From Corallium rubrum (taxonomy: Eukaryota; Cnidaria; Anthozoa; Scleralcyonacea; Coralliidae), in contig CAXIUP010000160.1 of assembly GCA_964035015.1 (NCBI GenBank), positions 56,805 through 120,804 of the forward strand: a DNA stretch of 64,000 nt. Direction: 5' to 3'. The first letter of the stretch is position 1. Each line of letters opens with the position of its first letter. The position numbers were made by a program, and so were the translations under genes. Below are positions 2,365-59,993 of the stretch, one piece after another. The notes beneath the pieces are model-generated. The model was not told where the DNA came from and made no database searches. It worked only from the letters and a program-made list of their open reading frames with translations.

Positions 2365-2585
2365 AAGACTTAGTCTATTTGTTTGACTGCTTAGACTGTT
2401 GAACAATATTTGATGTTCTTCTAGACATGTGTTAAGGTGAAACGATAAAGTGTCTTTATCGATATCAACGTTATTTTTCTTTAATTCGTCGTACATAATA
2501 TCCATCTTGTCAAACGTTTACCGTACGCACTAAACAACTCGACGGTATTTTGCCTACGGAAATCAGTCGGAGACCAGTCGGGAGT

Positions 2586-2701
2586 GACGTAGTGAAAACC
2601 AGGGGGGTTGAGTAACAACTATGGTTTAGGGGGAAAGTTAGGGTTAAGAGGGTAGCATAAATAATGATATTAGGGTTAGGGCTTGCTGACGTGACGCGCC
2701 G
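2586..2701 (-). repeat. Right terminal inverted repeat
   Basis: Pairs with 1-117. It carries TAGGGTTAGGG-type telomere-like motifs and CRE-like TGACGT sites. Confidence 0.85.
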
Positions 2702-2709
2702 CTATAAAA
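2688..2709 (+). promoter_or_regulatory. CRE-like site plus TATA box at element edge
   Basis: TGACGTGA at 2,688 is followed 15 bases later by TATAAAA at 2,703. The same arrangement occurs at 9,325-9,347 and, inverted, near 49,965-49,985. This suggests a conserved core promoter or terminal motif. Promoter activity is inference. Confidence 0.45.
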
Positions 2710-3689
2710 TGAATACTAATGAGATGAGGGGCTACACACCGTTTGCATACTAATTACTTCCGCCGCCCACCGACTTATTATTTATGCATACGTCATTATT
2801 TCTCAGGCTCCTTTAGGACCCTCTTAACCCTAACTTTTCCCCCCAACCCTAACTGTTATTCAACCCCCCGGTGTTCATACGTCATAGCCGATAGAGCTCT
2901 CCGACTGATTTCCGAAGTTACATCATTGTCAAAAGGCATTCGACTTCTATCCTTATAAGTAATAGCAATTACCTTTTCATTTATACACTTTACCATACTG
3001 TCAGTCAACAGTTGTGGGACATGTAAACGTACAGAGCATGCGTACGATAAACTTTAACAAAATAGACGTTCTTTACAAGGAACGAAAGAGAAATTGATAG
3101 AGATACTTTATATTTTTTATCTGAAACCTCATCTGTGTGAGTATAGAGAGTTTTCAACAGTCCAAGTGGGTAAATCGGCTGAGAACTTCTGTGGTGTAAC
3201 TTGAATATTATTTGAATAAACTATGAATATTATATTAGTTTAGAACCTAAATATTCAAACAGAGTAAGTTAACCTAGAATCTTTGTTAGCTAAACCTTTG
3301 TTTATAAGCGAGGAAATTGTAGGAAGATAAAATGAGGAATTACTTCGAGAAGTCGAACTTAAGATACGAGTCGATTCGAAAACCTAAGGGCTTTCAATCG
3401 TATTGGCACATGGCAACGTAAATCTTATATAGAGAATGCTTAGCAACGTTCAATATGAATATATTAAGACACTTAGAAACAAATCAAACACAGAATTTTT
3501 ACTAAGTTAACCTTATACTTTATAAGTGAGGAAATTGTAGGAAGATAAAATGTGGAATCACTTCGAGAAGCCGTAAGAACGATTTTAAATGTCGAAATAT
3601 AAAGGCTAAGCGATTTATTACTTTGATATATAACTGAGATTCATCATGGTTACTAGGGATCGATATTAGAATATTCAAATTCGTTTGCA

Positions 3690-3775
3690 AGGCCACGTGC
3701 AGGAGATAAAAGAGAAACTCATTAGGGGTCATTAAGAGGATTAAGCGCTTAGGCAAGTCTAGGCGGGAAGATAAT
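3690..3775 (+). repeat. Conserved E-box module, copy 2 (variant)
   Basis: A variant module with GGCCACGTGCAGGAGA, then AAAAGAGAAACTCATTAGGG, GCGCTTAGGCAAGTCTAGGC and a gap-like tail. Confidence 0.8.
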
Positions 3776-3892
3776 TAACAGTGTTACCATAGCGAAACCG
3801 CGTCGCATCCTTCATTCGTCTCAGGCTCCTTGGCCCCGTGTAATACGTCATAATCGATACTCTCCGCTCTACTGCTACTTAGCCCCCCGGCA

Positions 3893-3990
3893 TATTTATC
3901 CTCAGTGCACGTGCAGGAGACAAAAGAGAAACTCATTAGGGGCAATTATGAGGATTAGGCAAGTCTAGGCGAGAAAGTCATTAGCGTGTA
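3893..3990 (+). repeat. Conserved E-box module, copy 3
   Basis: CTCAGTGCACGTGCAGGAGA at 3,901-3,920, then the conserved CAAAAGAGAAACTCATTAGG and AAGTCTAGGCGAGAAAGTCA blocks. It ends just before the 3' flank of the ATPase gene. Confidence 0.85.
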
Positions 3991-4030
3991 CTTTGCATAA
4001 GACAGAATTCACAACAATCAGTTTAAAATA

Positions 4031-4036
4031 TTTATT
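4031..4036 (-). terminator. Poly(A) signal for left ATPase copy
   Basis: TTTATT on the plus strand reads AATAAA on the minus strand, about 60 bases past the ATPase stop. It is mirrored at 7,912-7,917. Confidence 0.6.
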
Positions 4037-4094
4037 TAGGCTTTGGTTTAAACTTACACATATCAAAACAAATTACGGTTACATATAAAACGTT

Positions 4095-5426
4095 TTAGTA
4101 AGGTCTGCTTCTTAGATTATATTTAGGTGTTTTTATTTTAAAAGAAGCATGATAGTCTTTCTTGTCCTCTGATGATAATTGGGACACATCTTCTTTTGTC
4201 ATGGGTAAATATTTTGATCTAGTCATCATTAGATGGTGTTCATACTCTTCTCTTTCACCCGGGGACATCTTTGCCAAGTCGCTTTCTTTCCAATCCGAAG
4301 AGCTTTCCCAGTTATGAAAGAAATTATGTTTAAGCGTCGGTTGTGCAACTTTTGGTGGCGGTGTTACAAAATAGGTTTTAGGTGTAGCAGAGAAACCCCA
4401 CGGAAGATCGTCAGTTTCTTGCTTTATCTCCGGTGTCAAATTTGGTGTATTTTGCTGAGTTTGAAGATTAGTCAGAGGTTGAGACTGATTTTGCAGTTGG
4501 TTTTGGAACGTCAGAAAACGTCCTAGCTGATTGGAGTGAAGTATGTTCTTTTCTTCAGGTGTTAACTGTGGCGCTTTTACAATATCTTGCATTTTTTGTT
4601 CTGTATTGTACATGGCATTAACGATTGGAGGTAATTGATAGGATTGCTTTTGTATGAAACTACCCAGCTGTTGCTGCAGGCTGGAGCTATTTTCTCCAGG
4701 TAGAACATTGGTCTTGAGGCGATGATCGTCGTCCGTGGTCGGCTTTAGATCTAGCATAAGATAACCATGAGGGCGACTTGTGGCTTCCTCGTAACTCCTC
4801 ATAAATTCATGGACATGACCTGGGTTCACCTGCCGTGCCAAGACAGAAATTTGCTGCTTATCCCTCGGGGACTTAAAGAGCACAATATAGTGTGCGTTGA
4901 GGCTGATGTTTCTGGTTTCTTTGCCGTGATGGAAAATGTTCTGAACAATATAGATCACGGAGAGATTCCTGTGATGACTACCTTTAGTAAATAGACTAGC
5001 AATACGTTTATCTACCCCAGATTGAGCCATAAGATCATCGAGGACGACCAGGTTACGTTGAGAGACGTCTAGAAAATTATCAGAGTCAATGTTGGAAGGT
5101 ATACCCTCATAGAATTCGATGCCTGGTATTGTTTTGATCATTTCTAAATACATGGGCTGCCACTGTCCATAGCACCAAATGATACGTTCGGGAGGAGGAT
5201 TAATCGTAGTTTTGGCGTTTTCAAGAAGTGTTTTCACCCATACTGTTTTACCACTTTGAGTGCACCCTGCTACAATACACGTGAACGGGTGCTGCGTGAA
5301 TGTAGATACGTTGGCTAGAGGAATAGGTTGTGAGGCGTCGCTCTCGGGGTGGACATTCTTAATATGACGAAGAAGGTGCTCTTTTCTCGATAGACTTTTT
5401 CCGCATTTGTTGCAAACGTGTGACAT
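4095..5426 (-). CDS. C2H2 zinc finger plus A32/FtsK-HerA-like packaging ATPase, left copy
   Basis: 443 residues, starting at ATG 5,426; the open frame upstream has only non-ATG starts. Residues 5-26 form one C2H2 finger (C5, C8, H21, H26). The P-loop is G-C-T-Q-S-G-K-T at 54-61, and Walker B is the hydrophobic run ending D-D at 130-131. A following V-Q-N segment resembles the sensor region of virus-type packaging ATPases. The C-terminal 170 residues are Q/N/P-rich and end in a basic Y-N-L-R-S-R-P-Y tail. Relatives in Polinton-like viruses power genome packaging (family knowledge). The N-terminal finger may bind element DNA (inference). No lesion is seen. The copy at 6,522-7,853 differs at only a few residues. 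Confidence 0.75.
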   Translation of the reverse strand: MSHVCNKCGKSLSRKEHLLRHIKNVHPESDASQPIPLANVSTFTQHPFTCIVAGCTQSGKTVWVKTLLENAKTTINPPPERIIWCYGQWQPMYLEMIKTIPGIEFYEGIPSNIDSDNFLDVSQRNLVVLDDLMAQSGVDKRIASLFTKGSHHRNLSVIYIVQNIFHHGKETRNISLNAHYIVLFKSPRDKQQISVLARQVNPGHVHEFMRSYEEATSRPHGYLMLDLKPTTDDDHRLKTNVLPGENSSSLQQQLGSFIQKQSYQLPPIVNAMYNTEQKMQDIVKAPQLTPEEKNILHSNQLGRFLTFQNQLQNQSQPLTNLQTQQNTPNLTPEIKQETDDLPWGFSATPKTYFVTPPPKVAQPTLKHNFFHNWESSSDWKESDLAKMSPGEREEYEHHLMMTRSKYLPMTKEDVSQLSSEDKKDYHASFKIKTPKYNLRSRPY

Positions 5427-5511
5427 GTTTACACGATGAGCACTGAACACCGAATGAGTTTATTATTTGGGAGCGCAATATTTAAATTATTTAACTAAAT
5501 TTCTGCAGAGG

Positions 5512-6436
5512 ATCTAAACACCCAAACACCCCTGGGGTACCCCCAACCACGCCAGGGGTAACCCCCAAACACCCCCGGGGGTAACCCCCAAACACCCCCG
5601 GGGTAACCCCCAAACACCCCCGGGGGTAACCCCCAAACACCCCCGGGGTAATCCCCAAACACCCCCTGGGTAACCCCCAAACATCCCCAGGATACCCCCA
5701 AACACCCTTGGGGTACCCCAATCACCCCAGGGGTAACCCCAATCACCCCACAGGTAACCCCCAAACACCCCAGGGATATCCCATCACCCCTGGGGTAACC
5801 CCAATCGCCCCTGGGGGTAACCCCCAAACACCCCAGAGATACCCCCAAACACCCCGGGGGTAAACCCAATCGCCCCCGGGGGTAACCCCTAAACACCCCC
5901 TGGGTAACCCACAATCACCCCCGGGGGTATCCCCCAAACACCCCTGGGATAAACCCCAAACACCCCTGGGGTGATTGGGGTACCCCAGGGGTGATTGGGG
6001 TACCCCAAGGGTGTTTGGGGGTATCCCTGGGGTGTTTGGGGGTTACCCCCGGGGGCGATTGGGGTTACCCCAGGTGTGATTGGGGTACCCCAAGGGTGTT
6101 TGGGGGTATCCCTGGGGTGTTTGGGGGTTACCCCCGGGGGCGATTGGGGTTACCCCAGGGGTGATGGGATATCCCTGGGGTGTTTGGGGGTTACCTGTGG
6201 AGTGATTGGGGTTACCCCTGGGGTGATTGGGGTACCCTAAGGGTGTTTGGGGGTATCCTGGGGATGTTTGGGGGTTACCCAGGGGGTGTTTGGGGGTTAC
6301 CCCGGGGGTGTTTGGGGGTTACCCCCGGGGGTGTTTGGGGGTTACGCCGGGGGTGTTTGGGGGTTACCCCCGGAGGTGTTTGGGGGTTACCCCTGGCGTG
6401 GTTGGGGGTACCCCAGGGGTGTTTGGGTGTTTAGAT
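5512..6436. repeat. Central G/C-rich tandem array of the palindrome
   Basis: About 40 units of 20-25 bases of the type GTGTTTGGGGGTTACCCC, inverted about position 5,974. Units contain GGGGTTACCCC or GGGGTACCCC self-complementary cores and G-runs able to form quadruplexes. It lies between the divergent ATPase start codons and could be a bidirectional promoter, a replication or end-fusion junction, or simply an expanded minisatellite. The G-Y-P-rich ORFs read through it are not genes. Confidence 0.9.
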
Positions 6437-6521
6437 CCTCTGCAGAAATTTAGTTAAATAATTTAAATATTGCGCTTCCAAATAATAAACTCATTTGGTG
6501 TTCAGTGCTCATCGTGTAAAC

Positions 6522-7853
6522 ATGTCACACGTTTGCAACAAATGCGGAAAAAGTCTATCGAGAAAAGAGCACCTTCTTCGTCATATTAAGAATGTCCACC
6601 CCGAGAGCGACTCCTCACAACCTATTCCTCTAGCCAACGTATCTACAGTCATGCAGCACCCGTTCACGTGTATTGTAGCAGGGTGCACTCAAAGTGGTAA
6701 AACAGTATGGGTGAAAACACTTCTTGAAAACGCCAAAACTACGATTAATCCTCCTCCCGAACGTATCATTTGGTGCTATGGACAGTGGCAGCCCATGTAT
6801 TTAGAAATGATCAAAACAATACCAGGCATCGAATTCTATGAGGGTATACCTTCCAACATTGACTCTGATAATTTTCTAGACGTCTCTCAACGTAACCTGA
6901 TCGTCCTCGATGATCTTATGGCTCAATCTGGGGTAGATAAACGTATTGCTAGTCTATTTACTAAAGGTAGTCATCACAGGAATCTCTCCGTGATCTATAT
7001 TGTTCAGAACATTTTCCATCACGGCAAAGAAACCAGAAACATCAGCCTCAACGCACACTATATTGTGCTCTTTAAGTCTCCGAGGGATAAGCAGCAAATT
7101 TCTGTCTTGGCACGGCAGGTGAACCCAGGTCATGTCCATGAATTTATGAGGAGTTACGAAGAAGCCACAAGTCGCCCTCATGGTTATCTTATGCTAGATC
7201 TAAAGCCGACCACGGACGACGATCATCGCCTCAAGACCAATGTTCTACCTGGAGAAAATAGCTCCAGCCTGCAGCAACAGCTGGGTAGTTTCATACAAAA
7301 GCAATCCTATCAATTACCTCCAATCGTTAATGCCATGTACAATACAGAACAAAAAATGCAAGATATTGTAAAAGCGCCACAGTTAACACCTGAAGAAAAG
7401 AACATACTTCACTCCAATCAGCTAGGACGTTTTCTGACGTTCCAAAACCAACTGCAAAATCAGTCTCAACCTCTGACTAATCTTCAAACTCAGCAAAATA
7501 CACCAAATTTGACACCGGAGATAAAGCAAGAAACTGACGATCTTCCGTGGGGTTTCTCTGCTACACCTAAAACCTATTTTGTAACACCGCCACCAAAAGT
7601 TGCACAACCGACGCTTAAACATAATTTCTTTCATAACTGGGAAAGCTCTTCGGATTGGAAAGAAAGCGACTTGGCAAAGATGTCCCCGGGTGAAAGAGAA
7701 GAGTATGAACACCATCTAATGATGACTAGATCAAAATATTTACCCATGACAAAAGAAGATGTGTCCCAATTATCATCAGAGGACAAGAAAGACTATCATG
7801 CTTCTTTTAAAATAAAAACACCTAAATATAATCTAAGAAGCAGACCTTACTAA
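6522..7853 (+). CDS. C2H2 zinc finger plus A32/FtsK-HerA-like packaging ATPase, right copy
   Basis: 443 residues from ATG 6,522 (upstream in-frame starts at 6,495-6,498 are TTG and GTG). The architecture matches the left copy: C2H2 finger at 5-26, P-loop at 54-61, Walker B near 126-131, low-complexity linker, basic tail. Visible differences include A/S near residue 31, F-T versus V-M near 43-44 and V/I in Walker B. The gene is divergent from its twin across the central array. It has its own AATAAA 60 bases after the stop. Both copies are open and nearly identical, so the palindrome is young or kept uniform by gene conversion. Confidence 0.75.
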   Translation: MSHVCNKCGKSLSRKEHLLRHIKNVHPESDSSQPIPLANVSTVMQHPFTCIVAGCTQSGKTVWVKTLLENAKTTINPPPERIIWCYGQWQPMYLEMIKTIPGIEFYEGIPSNIDSDNFLDVSQRNLIVLDDLMAQSGVDKRIASLFTKGSHHRNLSVIYIVQNIFHHGKETRNISLNAHYIVLFKSPRDKQQISVLARQVNPGHVHEFMRSYEEATSRPHGYLMLDLKPTTDDDHRLKTNVLPGENSSSLQQQLGSFIQKQSYQLPPIVNAMYNTEQKMQDIVKAPQLTPEEKNILHSNQLGRFLTFQNQLQNQSQPLTNLQTQQNTPNLTPEIKQETDDLPWGFSATPKTYFVTPPPKVAQPTLKHNFFHNWESSSDWKESDLAKMSPGEREEYEHHLMMTRSKYLPMTKEDVSQLSSEDKKDYHASFKIKTPKYNLRSRPY

Positions 7854-7911
7854 AACGTTTTATATGTAACCGTAATTTGTTTTGATATGTGTAAGTTTAA
7901 ACCAAAGCCTA

Positions 7912-7917
7912 AATAAA
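7912..7917 (+). terminator. Poly(A) signal for right ATPase copy
   Basis: AATAAA 59 bases after the stop codon, mirrored at 4,031-4,036. Confidence 0.6.
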
Positions 7918-7957
7918 TATTTTAAACTGATTGTTGTGAATTCTGTCTTATGCAAAG

Positions 7958-8055
7958 TACACGCTAATGACTTTCTCGCCTAGACTTGCCTAATCCTCAT
8001 AATTGCCCCTAATGAGTTTCTCTTTTGTCTCCTGCACGTGCACTGAGGATAAATA
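7958..8055 (-). repeat. Conserved E-box module, copy 4
   Basis: Mirror of the 3,893-3,990 module in the right palindrome arm. Confidence 0.85.
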
Positions 8056-8172
8056 TGCCGGGGGGCTAAGTAGCAGTAGAGCGGAGAGTATCGATTATGA
8101 CGTATTACACGGGGCCAAGGAGCCTGAGACGAATGAAGGATGCGACGCGGTTTCGCTATGGTAACACTGTTA

Positions 8173-8258
8173 ATTATCTTCCCGCCTAGACTTGCCTAAG
8201 CGCTTAATCCTCTTAATGACCCCTAATGAGTTTCTCTTTTATCTCCTGCACGTGGCCT
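8173..8258 (-). repeat. Conserved E-box module, copy 5 (variant)
   Basis: Mirror of 3,690-3,775. Confidence 0.8.
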
Positions 8259-9178
8259 TGCAAACGAATTTGAATATTCTAATATCGATCCCTAGTAACC
8301 ATGATGAATCTCAGTTATATATCAAAGTAATAAATCGCTTAGCCTTTATATTTCGACATTTAAAATCGTTCTTACGGCTTCTCGAAGTGATTCCACATTT
8401 TATCTTCCTACAATTTCCTCACTTATAAAGTATAAGGTTAACTTAGTAAAAATTCTGTGTTTGATTTGTTTCTAAGTGTCTTAATATATTCATATTGAAC
8501 GTTGCTAAGCATTCTCTATATAAGATTTACGTTGCCATGTGCCAATACGATTGAAAGCCCTTAGGTTTTCGAATCGACTCGTATCTTAAGTTCGACTTCT
8601 CGAAGTAATTCCTCATTTTATCTTCCTACAATTTCCTCGCTTATAAACAAAGGTTTAGCTAACAAAGATTCTAGGTTAACTTACTCTGTTTGAATATTTA
8701 GGTTCTAAACTAATATAATATTCATAGTTTATTCAAATAATATTCAAGTTACACCACAGAAGTTCTCAGCCGATTTACCCACTTGGACTGTTGAAAACTC
8801 TCTATACTCACACAGATGAGGTTTCAGATAAAAAATATAAAGTATCTCTATCAATTTCTCTTTCGTTCCTTGTAAAGAACGTCTATTTTGTTAAAGTTTA
8901 TCGTACGCATGCTCTGTACGTTTACATGTCCCACAACTGTTGACTGACAGTATGGTAAAGTGTATAAATGAAAAGGTAATTGCTATTACTTATAAGGATA
9001 GAAGTCGAATGCCTTTTGACAATGATGTAACTTCGGAAATCAGTCGGAGAGCTCTATCGGCTATGACGTATGAACACCGGGGGGTTGAATAACAGTTAGG
9101 GTTGGGGGGAAAAGTTAGGGTTAAGAGGGTCCTAAAGGAGCCTGAGAAATAATGACGTATGCATAAATAATAAGTCGG

Positions 9179-9370
9179 TATGACGTAGTGAAAACCAGGG
9201 GGGTTGAGTAACAGCTAGGGTTAGGGGGTTTCGGAAGAGCGCGAGTCAGTTATGACGTAATAAAACCTGGGGGTTCAGCAACAAGCGGGGGTACGGGGGT
9301 GCCGGGACTAGGGTTAGAACTTAGTGACGTAACGCGACGCTATAAAATGAATAAATAATAAGTTGAATAT
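9179..9370. repeat. TIR-like subterminal sequence of another family copy
   Basis: Resembles 2,583-2,725: TGACGTAGTG, a G-run, TAGGGTTAGGG-like motifs, TGACGTAAT, then the CRE/TATA pair. It directly abuts the palindrome. Confidence 0.75.
9325..9347 (+). promoter_or_regulatory. CRE-like TGACGTAA plus TATAAAA
   Basis: TGACGTAA (9,325-9,332) and TATAAAA (9,341-9,347) in the same arrangement as 2,688-2,709. No gene begins within the next 300 bases. Confidence 0.45.
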
Positions 9371-9420
9371 TTAATGAGGCGGCATCCCTTTGGTTGCCAT
9401 ATGGGGATCTATTACTACTG
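9366..9420 (+). repeat. Direct repeat, left copy
   Basis: Contains AATGAGGCGGCATCCCTTTG and an ATCTATTACTACT-like end. A diverged direct copy lies at 11,806-11,880. The pair flanks the two small genes between them. Confidence 0.65.
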
Positions 9421-20520: not shown

Positions 20521-20562
20521 TAAGAAATACACTCACATAAAGAGACATCTTACCCCCATAAA

Positions 20563-20594
20563 TAGATAATAATAATAATAATAATAGTAATAAC

Positions 20595-20655
<61 letters not shown>

Positions 20656-20666
20656 GTAATAACAAC

Positions 20667-20697
<31 letters not shown>

Positions 20698-20735
20698 GTA
20701 ATAATAATAATAATAGTAATAGTAATAGTAATAGT
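20563..20735 (+). repeat. (AAT)n-type microsatellite with interruptions
   Basis: AATAAT arrays interrupted by AGT, AAC and ATG variants, at the 5' border of element B and grading into the hexamer array. Confidence 0.9.
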
Positions 20736-21648
20736 TATGGTAATAGTAATAGTGATAGTGATAGTGATAGTGATAGTGATAGTGATAGTGATAGTGATAG
20801 TGATAGTGATAGTGATAGTGATAGTGATAGTGATAGTGATAGTGATAGTGATAGTGATAGTGATCGTGATCGTGATCGTGATCGTGATCGTGATCGTGAT
20901 CGTGATCGTGATCGTGATCGTAATCGTAATAGAAAAAGTAATCGTAATAGAAAAAGTAATCGTAATAGTAAAAGTAATAGTAATAGTGATAGTGATAGTG
21001 ATAGTGATAGTGATAGTGATAGTGATAGTGATAGTGATAGTGATAGTGATAGTGATAGTGATAGTGATAGTGATCGTGATCGTGATCGTGATCGTGATCG
21101 TGATCGTGATCGTGATCGTGATCGTAATAGAAAAAGTAATCGTAATAGAAAAAGTAATCGTAATAGTAAAAGTAATCGTAATAGTAATAGTGATAGTGAT
21201 AGTGATAGTGATAGTGATAGTGATAGTGATAGTGATAGTGATAGTGATAGTGATAGTGATAGTGATAGTGATAGTGATAGTGATAGTGATAGTGATAGTG
21301 ATAGTGATAGTGATAGTGATAGTGATAGTGATAGTGATAGTGATAGTGATAGTGATAGTAATAGTAATAGTAATAGTAATAGTTATGTTAATACTAATAG
21401 TAATGGTAATGGTAATGGTAATGGTAATGGTAATGGTAATGGTAATGGTAATGGTAATGGTAATGGTAATGGTAATGGTAATGGTAATGGTAATGGTAAT
21501 GGTAATGGTAATGGTAATGGTAATGGTAATGGTAATGGTAATGGTAATGGTAATGGTAATGGTAATGGTAATGGTAATGGTAATGGTAATGGTAATGGTA
21601 ATGGTAATGGTAATGGTAATGGTAATGGTAATGGTAATAGTAATAATG
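20736..21648 (+). repeat. About 910-bp hexanucleotide satellite
   Basis: Successive blocks of (GATAGT)n, (GATCGT)n, AGAAAAAGTAATCGTAAT inserts, again (GATAGT)n and (GATCGT)n, then (GGTAAT)n. The block order is partly duplicated, so there is a higher-order repeat of several hundred bases. The long V-I and V-M dipeptide frame through it is not a gene. Confidence 0.95.
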
Positions 21649-21649
21649 T

Positions 21650-21837
21650 AAATTTCGTTTTATTGATAATTAATAATTAAATTACAATGATAAACCTCAC
21701 TTATACAGGTAGTTTACCAATGTCTACTTGAACTGATGCTATATGACAATAAAAAGATTAGATGATCATTAGTTCTGGGTTATTCCATTCTTTGTTACGT
21801 CTACAAAAAGCATAGTACGAGCTTCTATAGTTATAAT

Positions 21838-21838
<1 letters not shown>
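21650..21838 (-). mobile_element. Very short 3' fragment of a non-LTR element
   Basis: The minus strand reads a short coding tail (Y-A-F-C-R-R-N-K-E-W), then a stop and a 3' UTR. This matches the extreme C-terminus of REL-type elements. It is severely 5'-truncated and lies between repeat arrays. Confidence 0.5.
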
Positions 21839-22138
<300 letters not shown>

Positions 22139-25197: not shown

Positions 25198-33202
<8,005 letters not shown>

Positions 33203-44383: not shown

Positions 44384-45743
44384 AGTCAGGGCTATCAGAG
44401 CTACGGGGTGTTGAAATATCTCGTGCAAGTATGCTCACTTGTTAAAATTTTTGAAATCTTTCATTGGATGTATTATAATTCAAATTTCTGCATTATGTAA
44501 AACTTTTTTAAATGCTCAAAATGTTTGCAACATCTTGTATTGTTAATATAACAGTCTTTTACTTCTCACAAGTATTATAAATTTTCAGATTTATTTTTTT
44601 TTGTTCAAGTACTTAAAGGTGATCTACAGTGCAATCTGCGCAGTCCAGAAAGTAGGCTCATATTAATAATTGTACGTTTGTTGATGTTTCTCAAAGTTCC
44701 AGGGCTGCACTGCAAACCCACAAATCTTGTTAAAATAATGTTTTTTTAGGGATTTGCAGTATAATTTTATGGTTTAACGGAAAGAGTTGGTTGCGTGTGT
44801 GTTGTAAAGAAAGGAGAACAAAGAGTGGCCTAATCTCTGGGCGACTGAAATTTTCAGGCCGACCTAACTACAGACCAGCTTTCCATGTACAGTTAACAGA
44901 ATCTAAGTCTAATTGGGACCGATTCGGGCCACGAAAAACAGCTTTGTAACCGACGTAATAAGCATACTTTCACCTCTGTCTAGTCCCGTCGTTCTAAAGC
45001 ACCGCGTATTTGATGAGACTGGTACCTAGGTCTGACGTCACCGCTCAAGGTGCTCTAGAACGCCTAGCAGATTTCAGTATTTTTAAGATGGCAATATTTA
45101 ATACACTTGACAAGGTTAAAACACAAATTGTTTACGCTTGACGTACCTTCAATAGGAATGAAATAGTAAACCATATGTAAATTTTAAACATGCACGTTTT
45201 AATAACTAAGAAATTCTAAAATAAAAGCTTTGAGTAAACCTGCCGATAAGTCAGTAAATTCGTTCTTCAACGTCCAACAGCTCACCTAACGTTTAATGAA
45301 TTCATCACCTTCAATATTTTCTGTACTTCGTAAAAATATCCGTTGTAATAACTTATCAATGTTAACGTTTCAATTTTAAATACCCACGGCATTACACAAT
45401 GCGAAATACAACAATTAAAATCACAACATTCTGCAAACAGCGTCAATAAAACACAAATACAGGTCAAGTGGTGTAAATACCAAATAATAAGATTGATTTA
45501 ATCACAGGTCGAGGTCGGCAAGTTCTTAGTTATTACGTTGGAACAAGTAATAAAACAAATCAAAATTAGTCACCTGGTTTTGCAGCCGGGGAAAATATTT
45601 TCTTTTACGAGCATGATGGGGTCCGGTGTCCAGGGCCCACTTTTTGAAAATTAGGGCCCATTTTACTAAAATCTGCTAGGCTCTCTCGCGCAGCGCTCGA
45701 GAACAGGCGCCCATGCTAGCAGATATTATAACAGCGAAGAGAG
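44384..45743. other. Intergenic stretch without recognised gene
   Basis: AT-rich unique-looking sequence. A short inverted repeat (CGTTCTAAAGCACC / GGTGCTCTAGAACG) lies at about 44,990-45,063 and a TCTCTCGCGCAGCGCTCGAGA-like segment near 45,682. No gene seen. Confidence 0.4.
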
Positions 45744-46024
45744 TGCAGCTACCAATGGAAATTACATGTTTATTTATATTCCTCTACATAATTTACATAA
45801 ATTATGAACACGCATGCGTAAATGCGTTAATTTATGTGATTTCCATGTGACTGAAATCGAAACTCGAAGCAGTGGGCTTCACTCGTGGATAGTTATATTT
45901 TAATAGTTTTGTTTGGGATTTGCAAGGAATTTGCAGTATGTATAGGACGGATACAGTCGGTGAGTTTGTAGTATATACAGTATAGAGTAATTTGTAGTTT
46001 ATATTGTGTGTGTTATTTTAATTT
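45744..46024 (+). repeat. 5' LTR (at least this segment)
   Basis: Matches 59,711-59,993 nearly base for base, from GCTACCAATGGAAATTAC to GTTATTTTAATTT. The true LTR may be longer, because the 3' copy stops matching at 59,993 and could be truncated. No clear primer binding site was identified. Confidence 0.8.
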
Positions 46025-47327: not shown

Positions 47328-48743
47328 ATGTCGCAACCACAAAATGTGTCAACCTCAGTGCCAGGTGCAACTAATGTCACAACAAGGTCTCAGGACAAGC
47401 TACCAAAGAGTATCTTCACATCAGCAGCAAGAAATAATGTTTTGCCAAGAGCAATGACATTCAACACCTCTCCTGGACAGCAGCAAGCACCATTGGGCCC
47501 ACAGCTTCAGAATACAACAGAACAACAGCCAAGCCATGAAACAGTAGAAATTCCATCCAGCCAAAGAACCAATGGTGAAGAGATAGTACAGGCACTGCGA
47601 CAAGTTGTCCATAAACCTAAAATTGAATACTTTCATTTTAATGGTGAACCTCTCAAGTATGCTACATTTATGCATAACTTTGAGAACTGCTTGGAAAGGG
47701 ACAACCCTGATGAGTCGAGAAAGCTGCAGTTGCTGATCCAGCATTGTACAGGAAGGGCAAAGAAAGCCATTGTGAATTTGCCCAGTGGAGATGGTTACCG
47801 TATTGCTAAAGAAACATTGCACGAAAACGTTGGAAAACCTCACGTAATTGCCGAGGCACATATAAAGAAGTTGATGGACTTGCCCAATTTAAAGAATGGA
47901 GATGGTCCTTCATTGCTAGAATTTTCAAGGCATTTGAACACAGCACAAAGAACATTGACTGAAATAGGTGCTTCTTATGCATCAGGTTTGAATCACATGA
48001 ACACTTTGAGAGAACTAGCAAAGAAACTTCCAATGTACCTCAGAGCCAGATGGACAGAATGTGCTGGCAACCTTATCGAGTCAGACCGAATACCAGGATT
48101 TGAAGATTTTCGGAAATTTATCAAACAAAGAGCAAAGTTGGTGAATGACGAATTTGGAAAAGACATGAACGATGGCCCTTCAAAATTCAAGAACAGTAGA
48201 AACGAAAGGAGTGGAAAGAGCAATGGGTTGGGCTCCAAATTTTCCTCATTTGCAACCGGATTGAATAGTCAAAGGGGGACTACACGTTATCCAAGACCAA
48301 CATGTGAAGTTTGTTCTGGCCAGCATCGGATATGGAAATGTGAAAGGTTCAAGAATATTGAATACAGCCAGAAACGCAAGTTTGTCCTGCAGAATGGACT
48401 TTGCAATAAGTGTTTGGAGAAGGGACGTATTGCCAAGGACTGCCCTAAGACGAACTTCAAATGTCTTAAACATGGATGCGGTGAGCAACATCGCACCTTA
48501 ATGCATCGACCTGGCAAGGAAAAGGACAGCACAAGTCAAGATCAGAGTAAGGAGACTGCAGGGACAAGAGAAAGCAGAATATGTCTGGGAGTTGTTCCAG
48601 TTAGAGTACAAGGAAGAGCAGGCACACAAGAAGTAGAGACATTTGTCTTATTGGACAATGGTTCAGAAGTGACCTTGTGCCACGGTGATAAACTAAAGTT
48701 TACGTTAACTGGAGTAAATGGTTCGGCTGAAGTAGAGAGCTAA
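47328..48743 (+). pseudogene. BEL/Pao gag core, zinc knuckles and protease start
   Basis: 471 codons. A DUF1759-type gag core spans about residues 90-275 (K-I-E-Y-F-H-F-N-G-E ... F-M-H-N-F-E). Zinc knuckles follow: C-E-V-C ... H-R-I-W-K-C and C-N-K-C ... C-P-K. The start of an aspartic protease is near residue 445, with active-site-like L-L-D-N-G-S-E-V-T-L-C. The site reads D-N-G where canonical retroviral-type proteases have D-S/T-G. The frame stops at 48,741 with TAA and continues in the same frame from 48,759. Confidence 0.75.
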
Positions 48744-52326: not shown

Positions 52327-52551
52327 TTATGTAAAAGGGATTGACAGCATGTTGTCCCAACTAAGCCGGTTTGCTCTCCTGCTGGTTTTAAACACAGGAA
52401 GCAAAAAATCGGTCTCTACGAACTCTTTTCGGCAGTAAGCACATAGTGCATGCTGTTCCCAGTTGTTGCCTGCTGTCATTATCCATCTTCTTAAACAAGC
52501 AGCGTGTGTGAGATGGCTACAACAGGGTGTAGCAAAGGCTTTCTCCTTTAT
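52327..52551 (-). CDS. RING-finger-like C-terminal coding segment
   Basis: An open minus-strand stretch of 74 codons between a TGA at 52,552 and the stop at 52,327. It contains [14 protein letters not shown], then C-A-Y-C-R, which fits the second half of a RING domain (C-x-H-x2-H-x2-C-L-x2-W ... C-x2-C-R). It has no ATG before the motif, so it is probably a last exon or a 5'-broken gene. RING proteins are usually ubiquitin ligases (family knowledge). The mirrored copy in the right arm is cut at 56,326. Confidence 0.45.
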   Translation of the reverse strand: MKEKAFATPCCSHLTHAACLRRWIMTAGNNWEQHALCAYCRKEFVETDFLLPVFKTSRRANRLSWDNMLSIPFT

Positions 52552-54395
52552 TCACACCCTAAATCTAGGAGGTGTTTTCATAACGATGCCTATATTTGTG
52601 GAAACTTATCAAAATACTGTAATTCTAATACTAAACTTGTAATTTAGAGCTTGCACTACCCCATATTCCTCACTCTTTTATGCATTGCGTGTGTGTTTCA
52701 GAACGTATACGCCAACTCTTTCGCATAAGCCCACGCGACCAAACAATTATGCACGCCCTAAATCTATGAATGTTTTTTCTTATTGATGTCAATATTTGTA
52801 GAAACTTATCAAAATACTATATTTTTAATACTAAACATATAATTTAGAGCTTGCATTACCACACACCGACTCCTCACTCTTTTTAGGCAATATTTTGCTA
52901 TAATATAACTCAACAACACCTTTTATACGAGAGTTGATAAGCGTCGGCTTACACATTTAACCTGTACCAAAGGAATATCAGAAAGACATACACGTTATTT
53001 GTAAATACTTTATTGAACTTCAGCATAGTACAGAAGATGATGTTTCAACGATTCAACAGTAATTTTAATTCTTATAATTGGCGTCATTCCAATACTATGG
53101 CGTTTAGATTGATTGTAGGAGTACATTAGTTTTTTATAATACTGGTTCCTTTCGTTTGATGAAATCTAAACATATATTCAAAATGCTATATAGCCTTTAA
53201 TAAACCATTATCAGTATGTCTCAATGTCGCTTTTCTCAGGTATTGAGCACTTATCTTTGTACCCGGGGTTGATATACATAATGTGTATCAGTCGGAAATA
53301 TTCCGGATCTTACTCGGATTTCATCGGGGCATGTCGGTGTGAGATCGACAAACAGGTAAGAACACGGCTCTTTGGTTGCCATCTGGTAGGCTTGCTGGAA
53401 AAACTTTGTGTTGTCGGGATACAACTGTTTAGCAAGATGAGTCACTTGACTTGCATCACGAACATTTTTTGTTAGGACAAAGTAACTAGCGTTGAGAGAG
53501 ATGGTACGATGGTCTTTGCTTTGATGAAACAAATTTTGTACAATGTAAATCACGCTGAGATTACCATGATGGGATTTCTTCGTGAACAGTTTGGCAATAA
53601 TCGTATCTTTTTCACCCATCATGTCATCAATGATAAATAGATTTCTTATTTGGGGATTAATACTATCCAATATAGATTCGGATAAACCTTGCACAAACTG
53701 AATCCCAGGAATAAGAAGTTCCATTTTAGCAAACGTGTCTTGGTACTCAGAATAAAAATAAATTATATTTTCTGGGACAGGGTCGATCATGATTTGGGCG
53801 TTGGCTAACAATTCCTTGACAAAGGATGTCTTCCCCGTCTTGGTTCCCCCAGAGACCAAGAGCCCAAAGGGATGTGCTAATTGTATGGAGTATGTCTTTT
53901 TGTTGTCTTGGTCATTCGATGCGGTTCCATCAAATGGAGAATGCTTAAATGTAAAATCAGTAGACATCGTTTGTATTGGCCGATCTCCCCCATGCAGGAC
54001 CTTTACGTGGCGTTGTAAATTAAATTGTCTTGAAAAGCTCTTTCCGCAAATATTACAAGCGCTAGGCATGTTCACACAACAACTCTCAAATTACTTGTGA
54101 AAATTTCTAGGAGAAAAGTAAGATTATATCCTTGAGTTTCTTCTCTATTGCATGTGGGATACCAAAACGAACCAATGCGTATGCGTAGCTGGATGTTACT
54201 TAGACGCCGCCTCTAAGGGATTAACTCATGAGTAAAGGAGTAACTCATGAGTTACTCATGAGTAAAGGAGTAACTCACGAGTAAATGAGTAAATGAGTAA
54301 CTCATGAGTAAATGAGTGACTTATGAGTTACTCATGAGTAAATGAGTAACTCCGAGCCCTCGGCACCGAGCTCCGAGGCCTTGGCTCCTGGCTCC
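52472..54395 (+). repeat. Left arm of second palindrome
   Basis: Pairs with 54,397-56,327 (sum about 108,793-108,799, with small indels). The arm includes the 5' part of the RING-like segment, two diverged direct repeats (52,560-52,690 and 52,759-52,890) and the ATPase. Confidence 0.9.
53251..54069 (-). CDS. C2H2 zinc finger plus packaging-type ATPase, second family, left copy
   Basis: 272 residues from ATG 54,069 (54,075 is GTG). The C2H2 finger is at C5, C8, H21, H26, spaced exactly as in the 443-residue protein. The P-loop is G-G-T-K-T-G-K-T at 74-81. Walker B is a hydrophobic run ending D-D at 148-149. A V-Q-N-L-F segment follows. It shares gene layout and domain order with the ATPases at 4,095 and 6,522 but is diverged in sequence and lacks their C-terminal about 170 residues. 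The frame is intact. Likely role: DNA packaging motor of a Polinton-like element (inference). Confidence 0.7.
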   Translation of the reverse strand: MPSACNICGKSFSRQFNLQRHVKVLHGGDRPIQTMSTDFTFKHSPFDGTASNDQDNKKTYSIQLAHPFGLLVSGGTKTGKTSFVKELLANAQIMIDPVPENIIYFYSEYQDTFAKMELLIPGIQFVQGLSESILDSINPQIRNLFIIDDMMGEKDTIIAKLFTKKSHHGNLSVIYIVQNLFHQSKDHRTISLNASYFVLTKNVRDASQVTHLAKQLYPDNTKFFQQAYQMATKEPCSYLFVDLTPTCPDEIRVRSGIFPTDTHYVYQPRVQR

Positions 54396-54580
54396 AGTAA
54401 ATGAGTAACTCGTGAGTTACTCCTTTACTCATGAGTAACTCATGAGGTATTCATTTACTCATTTACTCACGAGTTACTCATTTACTCACGAGTTACTCAT
54501 TTACTCGTGAGTTACTCATTTACTCATGAGTTACTCTTTTACTCATGAGTTACTCCTTTACTCATGAGTTAATCCCTTAG
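54195..54580. repeat. Central TGAGTAA/TTACTCA tandem array
   Basis: Units of GAGTAACTCATGAGTAAAT type, inverted about 54,396 with a GC-rich CCTCGGCACCGAGCTCCGAGG hairpin-like insert near 54,358-54,390. Each unit holds bZIP-like TGAGTAA half-sites. It separates the divergent ATPase starts. Confidence 0.9.
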
Positions 54581-56327
54581 AGGCGGCGTCTAAGTAACAT
54601 CCAGCTACGCATACGCATTAGTTCGTTTTGGTATCCCACATGCAATAGAGAAGAAACTCAAGGATATAATCTTACTTTTCTCCTAGAAATTTTCACAAGT
54701 AATTTGAGAGTTGTTGTGTGAACATGCCTAGCGCTTGTAGTATTTGCGGAAAGAGCTTTTCAAGACAAGTTAATTTACAACGCCACGTAAAGGTCCTGCA
54801 TGGGGGAGATCGGCCAATACAAACGATGTCTACTGATTTTACATTTAAGCATTCTCCATTTGATGGAACCGCATCGAATGACCAAGACAACAAAAAGACA
54901 TACTCCATACAATTAGCACATCCCTTTGGGCTCTTGGTCTCTGGGGGGACCAAGACGGGAGACATCCTTTGTCATTGAATTGTTAGCCAACGCCCAAATC
55001 ATGATCGACTCTGTCCCAGAAAATATAATTTATTTTTATTCTGAGTACCAAGACACGTTTGCTAAAATGGAACTTCTTATTCCTGGGATTCAGTTTGTGC
55101 AAGGTTTATCCGAATCTATATTGGGTAGTATTAATCCCAAAGTAAGAAATCTATTTATCATTGATGACATGATGGGTGAAAAAAATACGATTATTGCCAA
55201 ACTGTTCACGAAAAAATCCCATCATGGTAATCTCAGCGTAATTTATATCGTGCAAAATTTGTTTCATCAAAGCAAAGACCATCGTACCATCTCTCTCAAC
55301 GCTAGTTACTTTGTCCTAACCAAAAATGTTCGTGATGCAAGTCAAGTGACTCATCTTGCTAAACAGTTGTATCCCGACAACACAAAGTTTTTCCAGCAAG
55401 CCTACCAGATGGCAACCAAAGAGCCGTATTCTTACCTGTTTGTCGATCTCACACCGACATGCCCCGATGAAATCCGAGTAAGATCCGGAATATTTCCGAC
55501 TGATACACATTATGTGTATCAACCCCGGGTACAAAGATAAGTGCTCAATACCTGAGAAAAGCGACATTGAGACATACTGATAATGGTTTATTAAAGGCTA
55601 TATAGGATGGCGCATTTTGAATACATGTTTAGATTTCATCAAACGAAAGGAACCAGTATTATAAAAAACTAATGTACTCCTACAATCAATCTAAACGCCA
55701 TAGTATTGGAATGACGCCAATTATAAGAATTAAAATTACTGTTGAATCGTTGAAACATCATCTTCTGTACTATGCTGAAGTTCAATAAAGTATTTACAAA
55801 TAACGTGTATGTCTTTCTGATATTCCTTTGGTACAGGTTAAATGTGTAAGCCGACGCTTATCAACTCTCGTATAAAAGGTGTTGTTGAGTTATATTATAG
55901 CAAAATATTGCCTAAAAAGAGTGAGGAGTCGGTGTGTGGTAATGCAAGCTCTAAATTATATGTTTAGTATTAAAAATATAGTATTTTGATAAGTTTCTAC
56001 AAATATTGACATCAATAAGAAAAAACATTCATAGATTTAGGGCGTGCATAATTGTTTGGTCGCGTGGGCTTATGCGAAAGAGTTGGCGTATACGTTCTGA
56101 AACACACACACAATGCATAAAAGAGTGAGGAATATGGGGTAGTGCAAGCTCTAAATTACAAGTTTAGTATTAGAATTACAGTATTTTGATAAGTTTCCAC
56201 AAATATAGGCATCGTTATGAAAAACACCTCCTAGATTTAGGGTGTGAATAAAGGAGAAAGCCTTTGCTACACCCTGTTGTAGCCATCTCACACACGCTGC
56301 TTGTTTAAGAAGATGGATAATGACAGC
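54397..56327 (-). repeat. Right arm of second palindrome
   Basis: Mirror of the left arm; ends at the BEL junction inside the RING-like segment. Confidence 0.9.
54724..55540 (+). pseudogene. C2H2 zinc finger plus packaging-type ATPase, second family, right copy
   Basis: Starts at ATG 54,724 and matches the left copy. A two-base deletion near 54,960 removes the P-loop lysine codon region and shifts the frame (54,724-54,975, then about 54,960-55,540). Residues after the shift remain very similar, including Walker B (I-I-D-D) and V-Q-N-L-F. The deletion is recent relative to the palindrome, because the twin is intact. Confidence 0.75.
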
Positions 56328-59610: not shown

Positions 59611-59710
59611 AGACTGATTGAGTGTATTACTGTTTATTGTGTTAAGCATGGTAGCTTTTTTTTTTAAATTTGTGAATGAGCATATGCATGTATGTTCATT
59701 TAGGGGCCGG

Positions 59711-59993
59711 TGTCGCTACCAATGGAAATTACTTGTTTATTTATATTCCTCTACATAATTTACATAAATTATGAACACGCATGCGTAAATGCGTTAATTT
59801 ATGCGATTTCCATGTGACTGAAATCGAAACTCGAAGCAGTGGGCTTCTCTCGTGGATAGTTATATTTTAATAGTTTTGTTTGGGATTTGCAAGGAATTTG
59901 CAGTATGTATAGGACGGATACAGTCGGTGAGTTTGTAGTATATATAGTATAGAGTAATTTGTAGTTTATATTGTCTATGTGTTATTTTAATTT
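59711..59993 (+). repeat. 3' LTR of BEL/Pao element
   Basis: Matches 45,744-46,024 with a handful of differences. It stops matching at 59,993, just before the DIRS-type element sequence. Confidence 0.8.

What the first reader, a model, noticed from the sequence alone, without database searches (positions are those of the whole stretch)
2770..9178. 6.4-kb near-perfect palindrome with two intact divergent zinc-finger/ATPase genes
The whole segment is its own reverse complement about position 5,974. Each arm holds a complete 443-residue gene (C2H2 finger, P-loop, Walker B) plus the terminal repeats of a Polinton-like family. Long palindromes are unstable, so near-identity of the arms implies a recent origin or active homogenisation. 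A possible reading is a hairpin or head-to-head dimer intermediate of a linear virus-like element, integrated as such, or an autonomous foldback element whose TIRs contain its gene. I know of no described element of this layout.
Basis: partly seen in the sequence, partly recalled or inferred. Interest (0 to 1): 0.87.

Follow-up and report, generated by a model that had tools for sequence, protein, structure and literature searches.

The report
Palindromic mobile element with twin genes
This 6.4-kb DNA palindrome is one of at least 26 copies of a Maverick-type mobile element in this genome that has become its own mirror image, with the same gene in each half, and its two halves look as if they are copied from one another before each jump.

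Summary
The palindrome is real: 2769-9179, arms 99% complementary, a 443-aa gene in each arm (C2H2 finger, Pox_A32-type ATPase), converging 22-bp arrays in the centre. It is not a one-off: all 54 long arm matches listed from the 474-Mb genome (a capped search) fall into 26 loci as head-to-head pairs. Of 21 loci with both ends readable, all have AGTAG.../...CTACT ends and 20 an exact 6-bp target duplication: Maverick/Polinton signatures. So they integrated as palindromes.

Over whole arms, the partner arm is nearest in 22 of 23 loci (one tie). Differences between loci sit in both arms; arm-private ones are rarely shared (7 of 260 columns). Private changes look neutral (38 N:12 S), between-locus sites constrained (63 N:78 S; p=1.4e-4). 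One locus is a double palindrome with 5-nt inverted microhomology at its fold: a snap-back scar made before integration.

Best reading: a Maverick-derived, heritable snap-back element, mobilised in trans, whose arms are recopied or repaired through a hairpin. My searches found no description of one. Some polymerase matches also lie in inverted pairs; a multipartite Maverick remains possible.

The parts
2769..5862 (.). left arm of the palindrome
   Evidence: inverted repeat with 6086-9179, 3,094 nt, 99%
6086..9179 (.). right arm of the palindrome
   Evidence: 0 mismatches over the outer 2,019 nt
4095..5426 (-). ATPase gene, left arm, 443 aa, intact frame
   Evidence: not scanned apart in Pfam, 4 residues different from the right copy
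6522..7853 (+). ATPase gene, right arm, 443 aa, intact frame; N-terminal C2H2-like finger, Walker A GCTQSGKT (motif name recalled)
   Evidence: RecA/F1-like P-loop fold, weak model
5517..5972 (.). central minisatellite, left array, ~22-bp unit with palindromic CCCC(N)GGGG core
5962..6431 (.). central minisatellite, right array, reverse-complement units
9180..9419 (.). outer part of the right terminal repeat, ending TATTACTACT, followed by GCGGTC; no left counterpart inside the window
52472..56327 (.). second palindrome of a different family (ATPase about 41% identical): genes 53251-54069(-) and a frame-broken copy from 54724(+), central TAACTCATGAG-type array

Best explanation
A family of Maverick/Polinton-derived, non-autonomous palindromic elements. 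SHOWN: at least 26 loci are head-to-head palindromes; where both ends are readable they have AGTAG/CTACT ends and 6-bp target duplications, so each integrated as a finished palindrome; over whole arms the two arms of a locus are each other's nearest relatives; between-locus changes are in both arms; the ATPase is under purifying selection between loci but not visibly after insertion; one locus carries a snap-back junction. INFERRED: the ancestor arose when a linear, TIR-ended Maverick DNA was copied back on itself near the ATPase, giving a molecule with the same replication and integration end on both sides. Its single strand folds into one long hairpin (arms = stem, minisatellite = loop); copying or mismatch repair of that stem makes the arms the same before an integrase supplied in trans inserts it. 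The ATPase is kept because it helps the element spread (packaging is the likely role).
For: 54 of 54 long arm matches listed are paired, in 26 loci; the search scored 27 of 2,190 candidates. Self-alignment shows an inverted repeat at all 25 fetched loci, C39 in two overlapping pieces, L010 and L028 partly masked. TSDs exact in 20 of 25 loci scripted, 20 of 21 where both ends are readable, the other 5 of 6 bases. Whole arms: partner nearest to the left arm in 22 of 23 loci, one tie; in the tree 19 of 23 loci have sister arms and 4 are unresolved, none split. 0-22 arm substitutions in 24 loci, none in 8. 0 shared arm differences in 14 chosen locus pairs against 1-115 symmetric ones; 7 shared of 260 asymmetric columns in 23 loci, six of the 7 one-base C gaps, a long gap counting once per column. 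Selection contrast p=1.4e-4, dN/dS 0.82 within and 0.20 between. L022: double palindrome, 8,150 bp, TSD CGCGGG, junction microhomology ACCTG (L022:5019-5023), all four gene starts identical over 593 nt. Maverick end motif (AGT)2//(ACT)2 and 6-bp TSD: PMC8097293, passages.
Against: Over the gene alone the pairing is weaker: of 24 loci, 4 single arms (L017_R, L019_L, L020_L, L025_R) are 1-2 sites closer to an arm of another locus than to their partner, and 5 arms tie. The loop asymmetry is shared between some sister loci (L018/L019, L026/L027, L031/L033, L033/L034 in the same orientation, L017/L020 flipped), so arms are not simply rebuilt from one half each cycle. A one-base deletion sits in one arm only in 5 of 7 loci of one subclade; it is in a G run and may be recurrent or a sequence error, but could be inherited heterozygosity. 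In the window locus the outer 2 kb is identical and the inner 0.7 kb is not (KS p=6e-5), which looks like local conversion there. A full-length Maverick with these ends was not read, so the parent and the trans-acting integrase are inferred. The structure model is weak (pLDDT 70.4, best TM about 0.4).
Confidence: 0.7

Rival explanations
1. The palindrome is inherited unchanged and the arms are made alike in the chromosome by gene conversion after insertion, as in Y-chromosome palindromes (recalled); no hairpin intermediate is needed. This does not exclude the best explanation and may act beside it.
For: Clustered mismatches in the window locus; shared loop asymmetry.
Against: In 6 other loci tested, mismatches do not depart significantly from even spacing (KS p 0.053, 0.055, 0.35, 0.50, 0.62, 0.82), though two are borderline. 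One-arm gaps of 10-33 bp persist unconverted (L009, L024, L033). Conversion in place does not explain L022, whose inverted duplication lies inside one TSD pair.
Confidence: 0.3
2. Each palindrome formed independently by snap-back from a full-length Maverick with a single ATPase; there is no palindromic lineage.
For: ATPase genes that look single exist (49 rows at 88-91%, no two within 20 kb, in a capped list); snap-back can happen (L022).
Against: The 46 rows at 92% or more (30 loci) include 25 of the 26 known palindromic loci and form a separate identity class; near-identical sister palindromes share similar central arrays. The single genes could not be fetched, so there is no joint tree.
Confidence: 0.15
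3. Assembly or library artefact (palindromic reads).
For: Reads could not be mapped here.
Against: Different flanking sequence on the two sides joined by an exact 6-bp duplication at 20 loci; arms of many loci differ by substitutions and indels of their own.
Confidence: 0.02
4. A Foldback/Galileo-type (P superfamily) element with a captured ATPase.
For: Long internally repeated TIRs, nearly palindromic copies.
Against: For Galileo the passages imply 7-bp flanking duplications, TIRs up to about 1.26 kb, and the longest TIRs only in copies without the transposase frame (PMC3573991 passages); here 6 bp, Maverick end motif, gene inside the arm.
Confidence: 0.03

Closest known systems
Maverick/Polinton elements
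   Same: (AGT)2//(ACT)2 ends, 6-bp TSD (PMC8097293 passages), Pox_A32-type ATPase
   Different: about 4.7-8.2 kb instead of a multi-gene element; only an ATPase seen, once in each arm; whole element palindromic
AAV snapback genomes (symmetric and asymmetric SBG, PMC8235507 passages)
   Same: one genome end and its gene doubled head to head, self-complementary, replicating with helper functions; asymmetric forms leave a loop
   Different: parvovirus subgenomes found in virus populations; here a chromosomal family at many loci with its gene under selection
Palindromic defective genomes of adenovirus and of yeast linear killer plasmids (recalled; my searches showed no paper on them)
   Same: linear DNA with inverted ends gives palindromic derivatives of one end
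   Different: not known to me as integrating, self-perpetuating families
Foldback / Galileo / Tetris elements (search listing; PMC3573991 passages)
   Same: long internally repeated TIRs, near-palindromic copies
   Different: different superfamily and target duplication; gene not inside both TIRs

Membership tests
Maverick/Polinton | 6-bp target site duplication | tested here: met
   20 of 25 loci scripted; of the 5 others L021 has 5 of 6 bases, L010 and L028 are masked on one side, W and L024 lack a readable pair; the C39 locus was looked at apart and not resolved
Maverick/Polinton | conserved (AGT)2//(ACT)2 end motif | tested here: met
   AGTAGT or AGTAGA (and complement) at both ends in the 21 readable loci; exact (AGT)2 motif from PMC8097293 passages
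Maverick/Polinton | packaging-type ATPase | tested here: met
   PF04665 1.9e-5, 24.7 bits against cut-off 22.8
Maverick/Polinton | own protein-primed PolB, integrase, protease and capsid genes | tested here: not met
   no ATG frame over 96 aa in the outer parts of 7 arms checked; the central arrays of the other loci were not scanned for frames. So it is filed as a derivative, not as a Maverick proper
Foldback/Galileo (P superfamily) | 7-8-bp TSD and P-type transposase | tested here: not met
   6-bp TSD; Pfam scan of the only large gene shows an ATPase
Snap-back (foldback-primed) derivative | inverted duplication with inverted microhomology and loop at the fold | tested here: met
   in L022 only, 1 locus of 26: ACCTG, loop 126 nt of gene sequence. 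The fold of the ordinary family members is hidden in the minisatellite
Snap-back (foldback-primed) derivative | extrachromosomal self-complementary molecule | not testable with these tools
   needs DNA from the organism

The most novel reading that the evidence does not exclude
The genome hosts a multipartite Maverick system in which separate small elements with a shared family of ends each carry one gene, several of them as palindromes (ATPase head to head; PolB tail to tail), held together by trans-complementation, with the palindrome acting as a built-in proofreading device: every cycle folds the element on itself and makes its two gene copies agree.
Probability: 0.17. Interest if true: 0.93.

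Novelty: new variant of a known kind. Interest (0 to 1): 0.82.

Why it matters
Palindromic derivatives of linear DNA viruses are usually seen as replication errors. Here one appears to have become a mobile lineage that keeps a gene under selection, in a class of transposons that has been argued to be bona fide viruses (title of PMC4028283, listing). Arm divergence gives a clock for each insertion, as LTRs do, and the family makes it testable how Maverick DNA replicates (single-strand, hairpin and snap-back steps), which to my knowledge is inferred mostly by analogy.

Tried and rejected
Assembly artefact: rejected on target duplications and locus-specific differences. Single doubled locus: rejected. 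Foldback/P-superfamily: rejected on TSD length. Relatives in viral contigs: none, with the protein or a 22-row alignment. PHROGs: no significant match. Solved structures by sequence: at E up to 0.001 only a zinc-finger protein. Integrase family PF00665: 150 rows with no way to tell Maverick integrases from others, probably mostly LTR elements; not used. Literature: Polinton+palindrom, 44 papers, 15 listed, none by title or abstract start on a palindromic Polinton; also (listings; 19 papers, 10 listed); linear-DNA palindrome searches gave nothing on point; AAV snapback genomes came up. Shared one-arm G5 to G4 deletion: kept as ambiguous, because the centre orientation (L017/L020 flipped) does not follow it.

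Not answered: a DNA search with the PolB piece L035 and a protein search with the integrase fragment 363-722, each tried many times, and one with the second-family ATPase, tried once. So the PolB pairs rest on the coordinates and scores only.
Full report
OBSERVATION. The inverted repeat is real: arms 2769-5862 and 6086-9179, 3,094 nt, 99%. Mismatches are not evenly spread: none in the outer 2,019 nt, 8 in the next 684, the rest in the central arrays. Each arm has an intact 443-aa gene pointing outwards from the centre; the right copy was scanned and has a Pox_A32-type ATPase domain over the curated cut-off and a C2H2 finger under it. A fold model gave a P-loop core of RecA/F1 type with weak global agreement. 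The centre is two converging arrays of a ~22-bp unit. Terminal-repeat sequence continues on the right to 9419 (TATTACTACT); no left end is in the window, where another Maverick-like piece (1-2701) lies against the arm.

THE GENOME. The window lies in a 474-Mb assembly of 312 contigs, host not named. A search with the arm reported 194 matches from 27 scored candidates of 2,190; the list shows 54 matches of 1 kb or more, and all 54 fall into 26 loci as plus-then-minus pairs, one locus (C12) with four arms. I fetched the other 25 loci in 26 pieces. Each shows an inverted repeat on self-alignment; L010 and L028 are partly masked and the C39 copy is interrupted. A protein search scored 95 rows of 2,173 candidates: 46 rows at 92% identity or more in 30 loci (25 of the 26 known palindromic loci, one more visible pair at C8:17.36 Mb, four with one arm listed and the partner undetermined), and 49 rows at 88-91%, no two within 20 kb, which look like single genes.

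ENDS. By script, 20 of 25 loci have AGTAGT or AGTAGA ... CTACT ends flanked by an exact 6-bp duplication; L021 has 5 of 6 bases; L010 and L028 are masked on one side; L024 and the window locus lack a readable pair; C39 was not resolved (sequences). The script looked for motif pairs near the ends of the inverted repeat; 13 of the 20 lie exactly at its ends, the others 2-30 bases off in total. Vertebrate Mavericks are reported with (AGT)2//(ACT)2 ends and 6-bp duplications (PMC8097293, passages). Duplications around the whole palindrome show that it was complete before integration.

ARMS EVOLVE TOGETHER. In 24 loci with both gene-bearing arms the arms differ by 0-22 substitutions in about 1.5-2.9 kb, with none in 8 loci. 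In whole-arm comparison of 23 loci (L010, L028 and C39 left out), the partner is the nearest arm to the left arm in 22 and ties in L019. A maximum-likelihood tree has sister arms in 19 of 23 loci and leaves L011, L017, L019 and L034 unresolved; none is split. Over the gene alone the signal is weaker: 4 arms (L017_R, L019_L, L020_L, L025_R), all in one shallow subclade, are 1-2 sites nearer to another locus than to their partner, and 5 arms tie. In 14 chosen locus pairs, with columns near gaps left out, 1-115 sites separate both arms of one locus from both arms of the other, 0-10 are private to one arm, and none is an arm difference shared by both loci. With gaps, 260 columns show an arm difference in some locus (a long gap counts once per column) and 7 of them in more than one: six one-base C gaps and one substitution. 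So the arms were practically identical when each copy inserted, while the family as a whole diverged. In L013 and L030 both arms have a stop at the same residue.

SELECTION. Arm-private changes in the gene, 24 loci: 38 non-synonymous, 12 synonymous. Sites differing between loci in both arms: 63 and 78 (Fisher p=1.4e-4). Pairwise dN/dS is 0.82 between arms and 0.20 between loci, the latter over 325 pairs of 26 loci. The gene decays after insertion but has been kept during spread. A caveat: part of the between-locus record could date from a non-palindromic ancestor.

A SNAP-BACK SCAR. L022 is 8,150 bp with the duplication CGCGGG on both sides. It reads: arm, centre, first 730 nt of the gene of the second arm, a fold, and the same backwards. 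At the fold ACCTG (L022:5019-5023) is shared between gene positions 726-730 and the complement of 595-599, leaving 126 nt of gene as the loop. Its four gene starts are identical over 593 nt; its halves differ by 9 substitutions and 6 internal one-base gaps, all within 2538-3272 of the half, between the two gene starts, where the array lies. A broken linear copy of the palindrome evidently folded back, was copied, and integrated.

MECHANISM. Shown: palindrome before integration, Maverick-type integration marks, arm sameness at insertion, gene retention, and one snap-back event. Inferred: that ordinary members arose the same way, that single strands fold into a hairpin whose stem is corrected or recopied, and that a full Maverick supplies polymerase and integrase. 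Against a strict rebuild from one half: loop asymmetry is shared by some sister loci, though many pairs show no preference for either orientation, and a one-base G-run deletion sits in one arm in 5 of 7 loci of a subclade. Correction of a stem with an uncorrected loop fits both better than full rebuilding. The window locus itself shows clustered mismatches (KS p=6e-5) where six others tested do not reach significance (p 0.053-0.82, two borderline), so local conversion has probably acted there too.

WIDER PATTERN. A second, only 41% related ATPase sits in a second palindrome in the window (52472-56327). PF03175 polymerase matches (76 of 1,079 candidates scored, list cut) include four convergent pairs spanning 6.9-8.3 kb, one (C49) with equal domain scores on both sides; by eye I saw no partner within 20 kb for the other polymerase loci listed. 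The terminal repeat of the window element occurs on other small elements: one of 6.15 kb at C20:9564136-9570285 with a single ATPase row, and one beside a polymerase match at C1:40.17 Mb. These are coordinates only; apart from 1,200 bases of one polymerase gene the sequences were not read.

NOVELTY. In some searches (listings) I saw no palindromic Maverick. The nearest described behaviour is that of AAV snapback genomes (PMC8235507, passages). The element is best filed as a new variant: a derivative of Mavericks by its ends and ATPase, not a Maverick proper because the other core genes were not seen.

Noticed in passing
52472-56327: Second palindromic ATPase element of another family, with its own central TAACTCATGAG-type array; right copy frame-broken near 54960. 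It lies inside a longer retroelement-like stretch.
   Followed up: partly
1-2701: Maverick-like piece with terminal repeats 1-125/2576-2701 (94%), a truncated integrase (363-722; rve E 0.003, below cut-off) and a nested inverted repeat 914-1090/2189-2365 (98%) around small frames.
   Followed up: partly
G000 C49:8477462/8485208, C20:2813095/2819970, C25:668822/677152, C1:17719949/17727135: DNA polymerase B (PF03175) matches in convergent inverted pairs spanning 6.9-8.3 kb; possible palindromic polymerase elements.
   Followed up: partly
G000 C20:9564136-9570285 and C1:72862850-72870131: Small elements with the same terminal repeats, one with a single ATPase row, the other 98-99% alike in its ends but without an ATPase row in the capped list.
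   Followed up: no
L022:880-9029: Double palindrome with four gene starts, a fossil of a snap-back event inside one target duplication.
   Followed up: yes
45743-46013 and 59710-59980: 97% direct repeats bounding a stretch with a DUF1759 gene (47328-48743); probably the LTRs of a BEL-type retroelement (name recalled) interrupted by nested insertions.
   Followed up: no
20561-22138: Over 1 kb of AATAGT hexamer and then ATA triplet repeats at the start of a strand-skewed region (20-34 kb) that holds a reverse-transcriptase gene (29208-33092).
   Followed up: no
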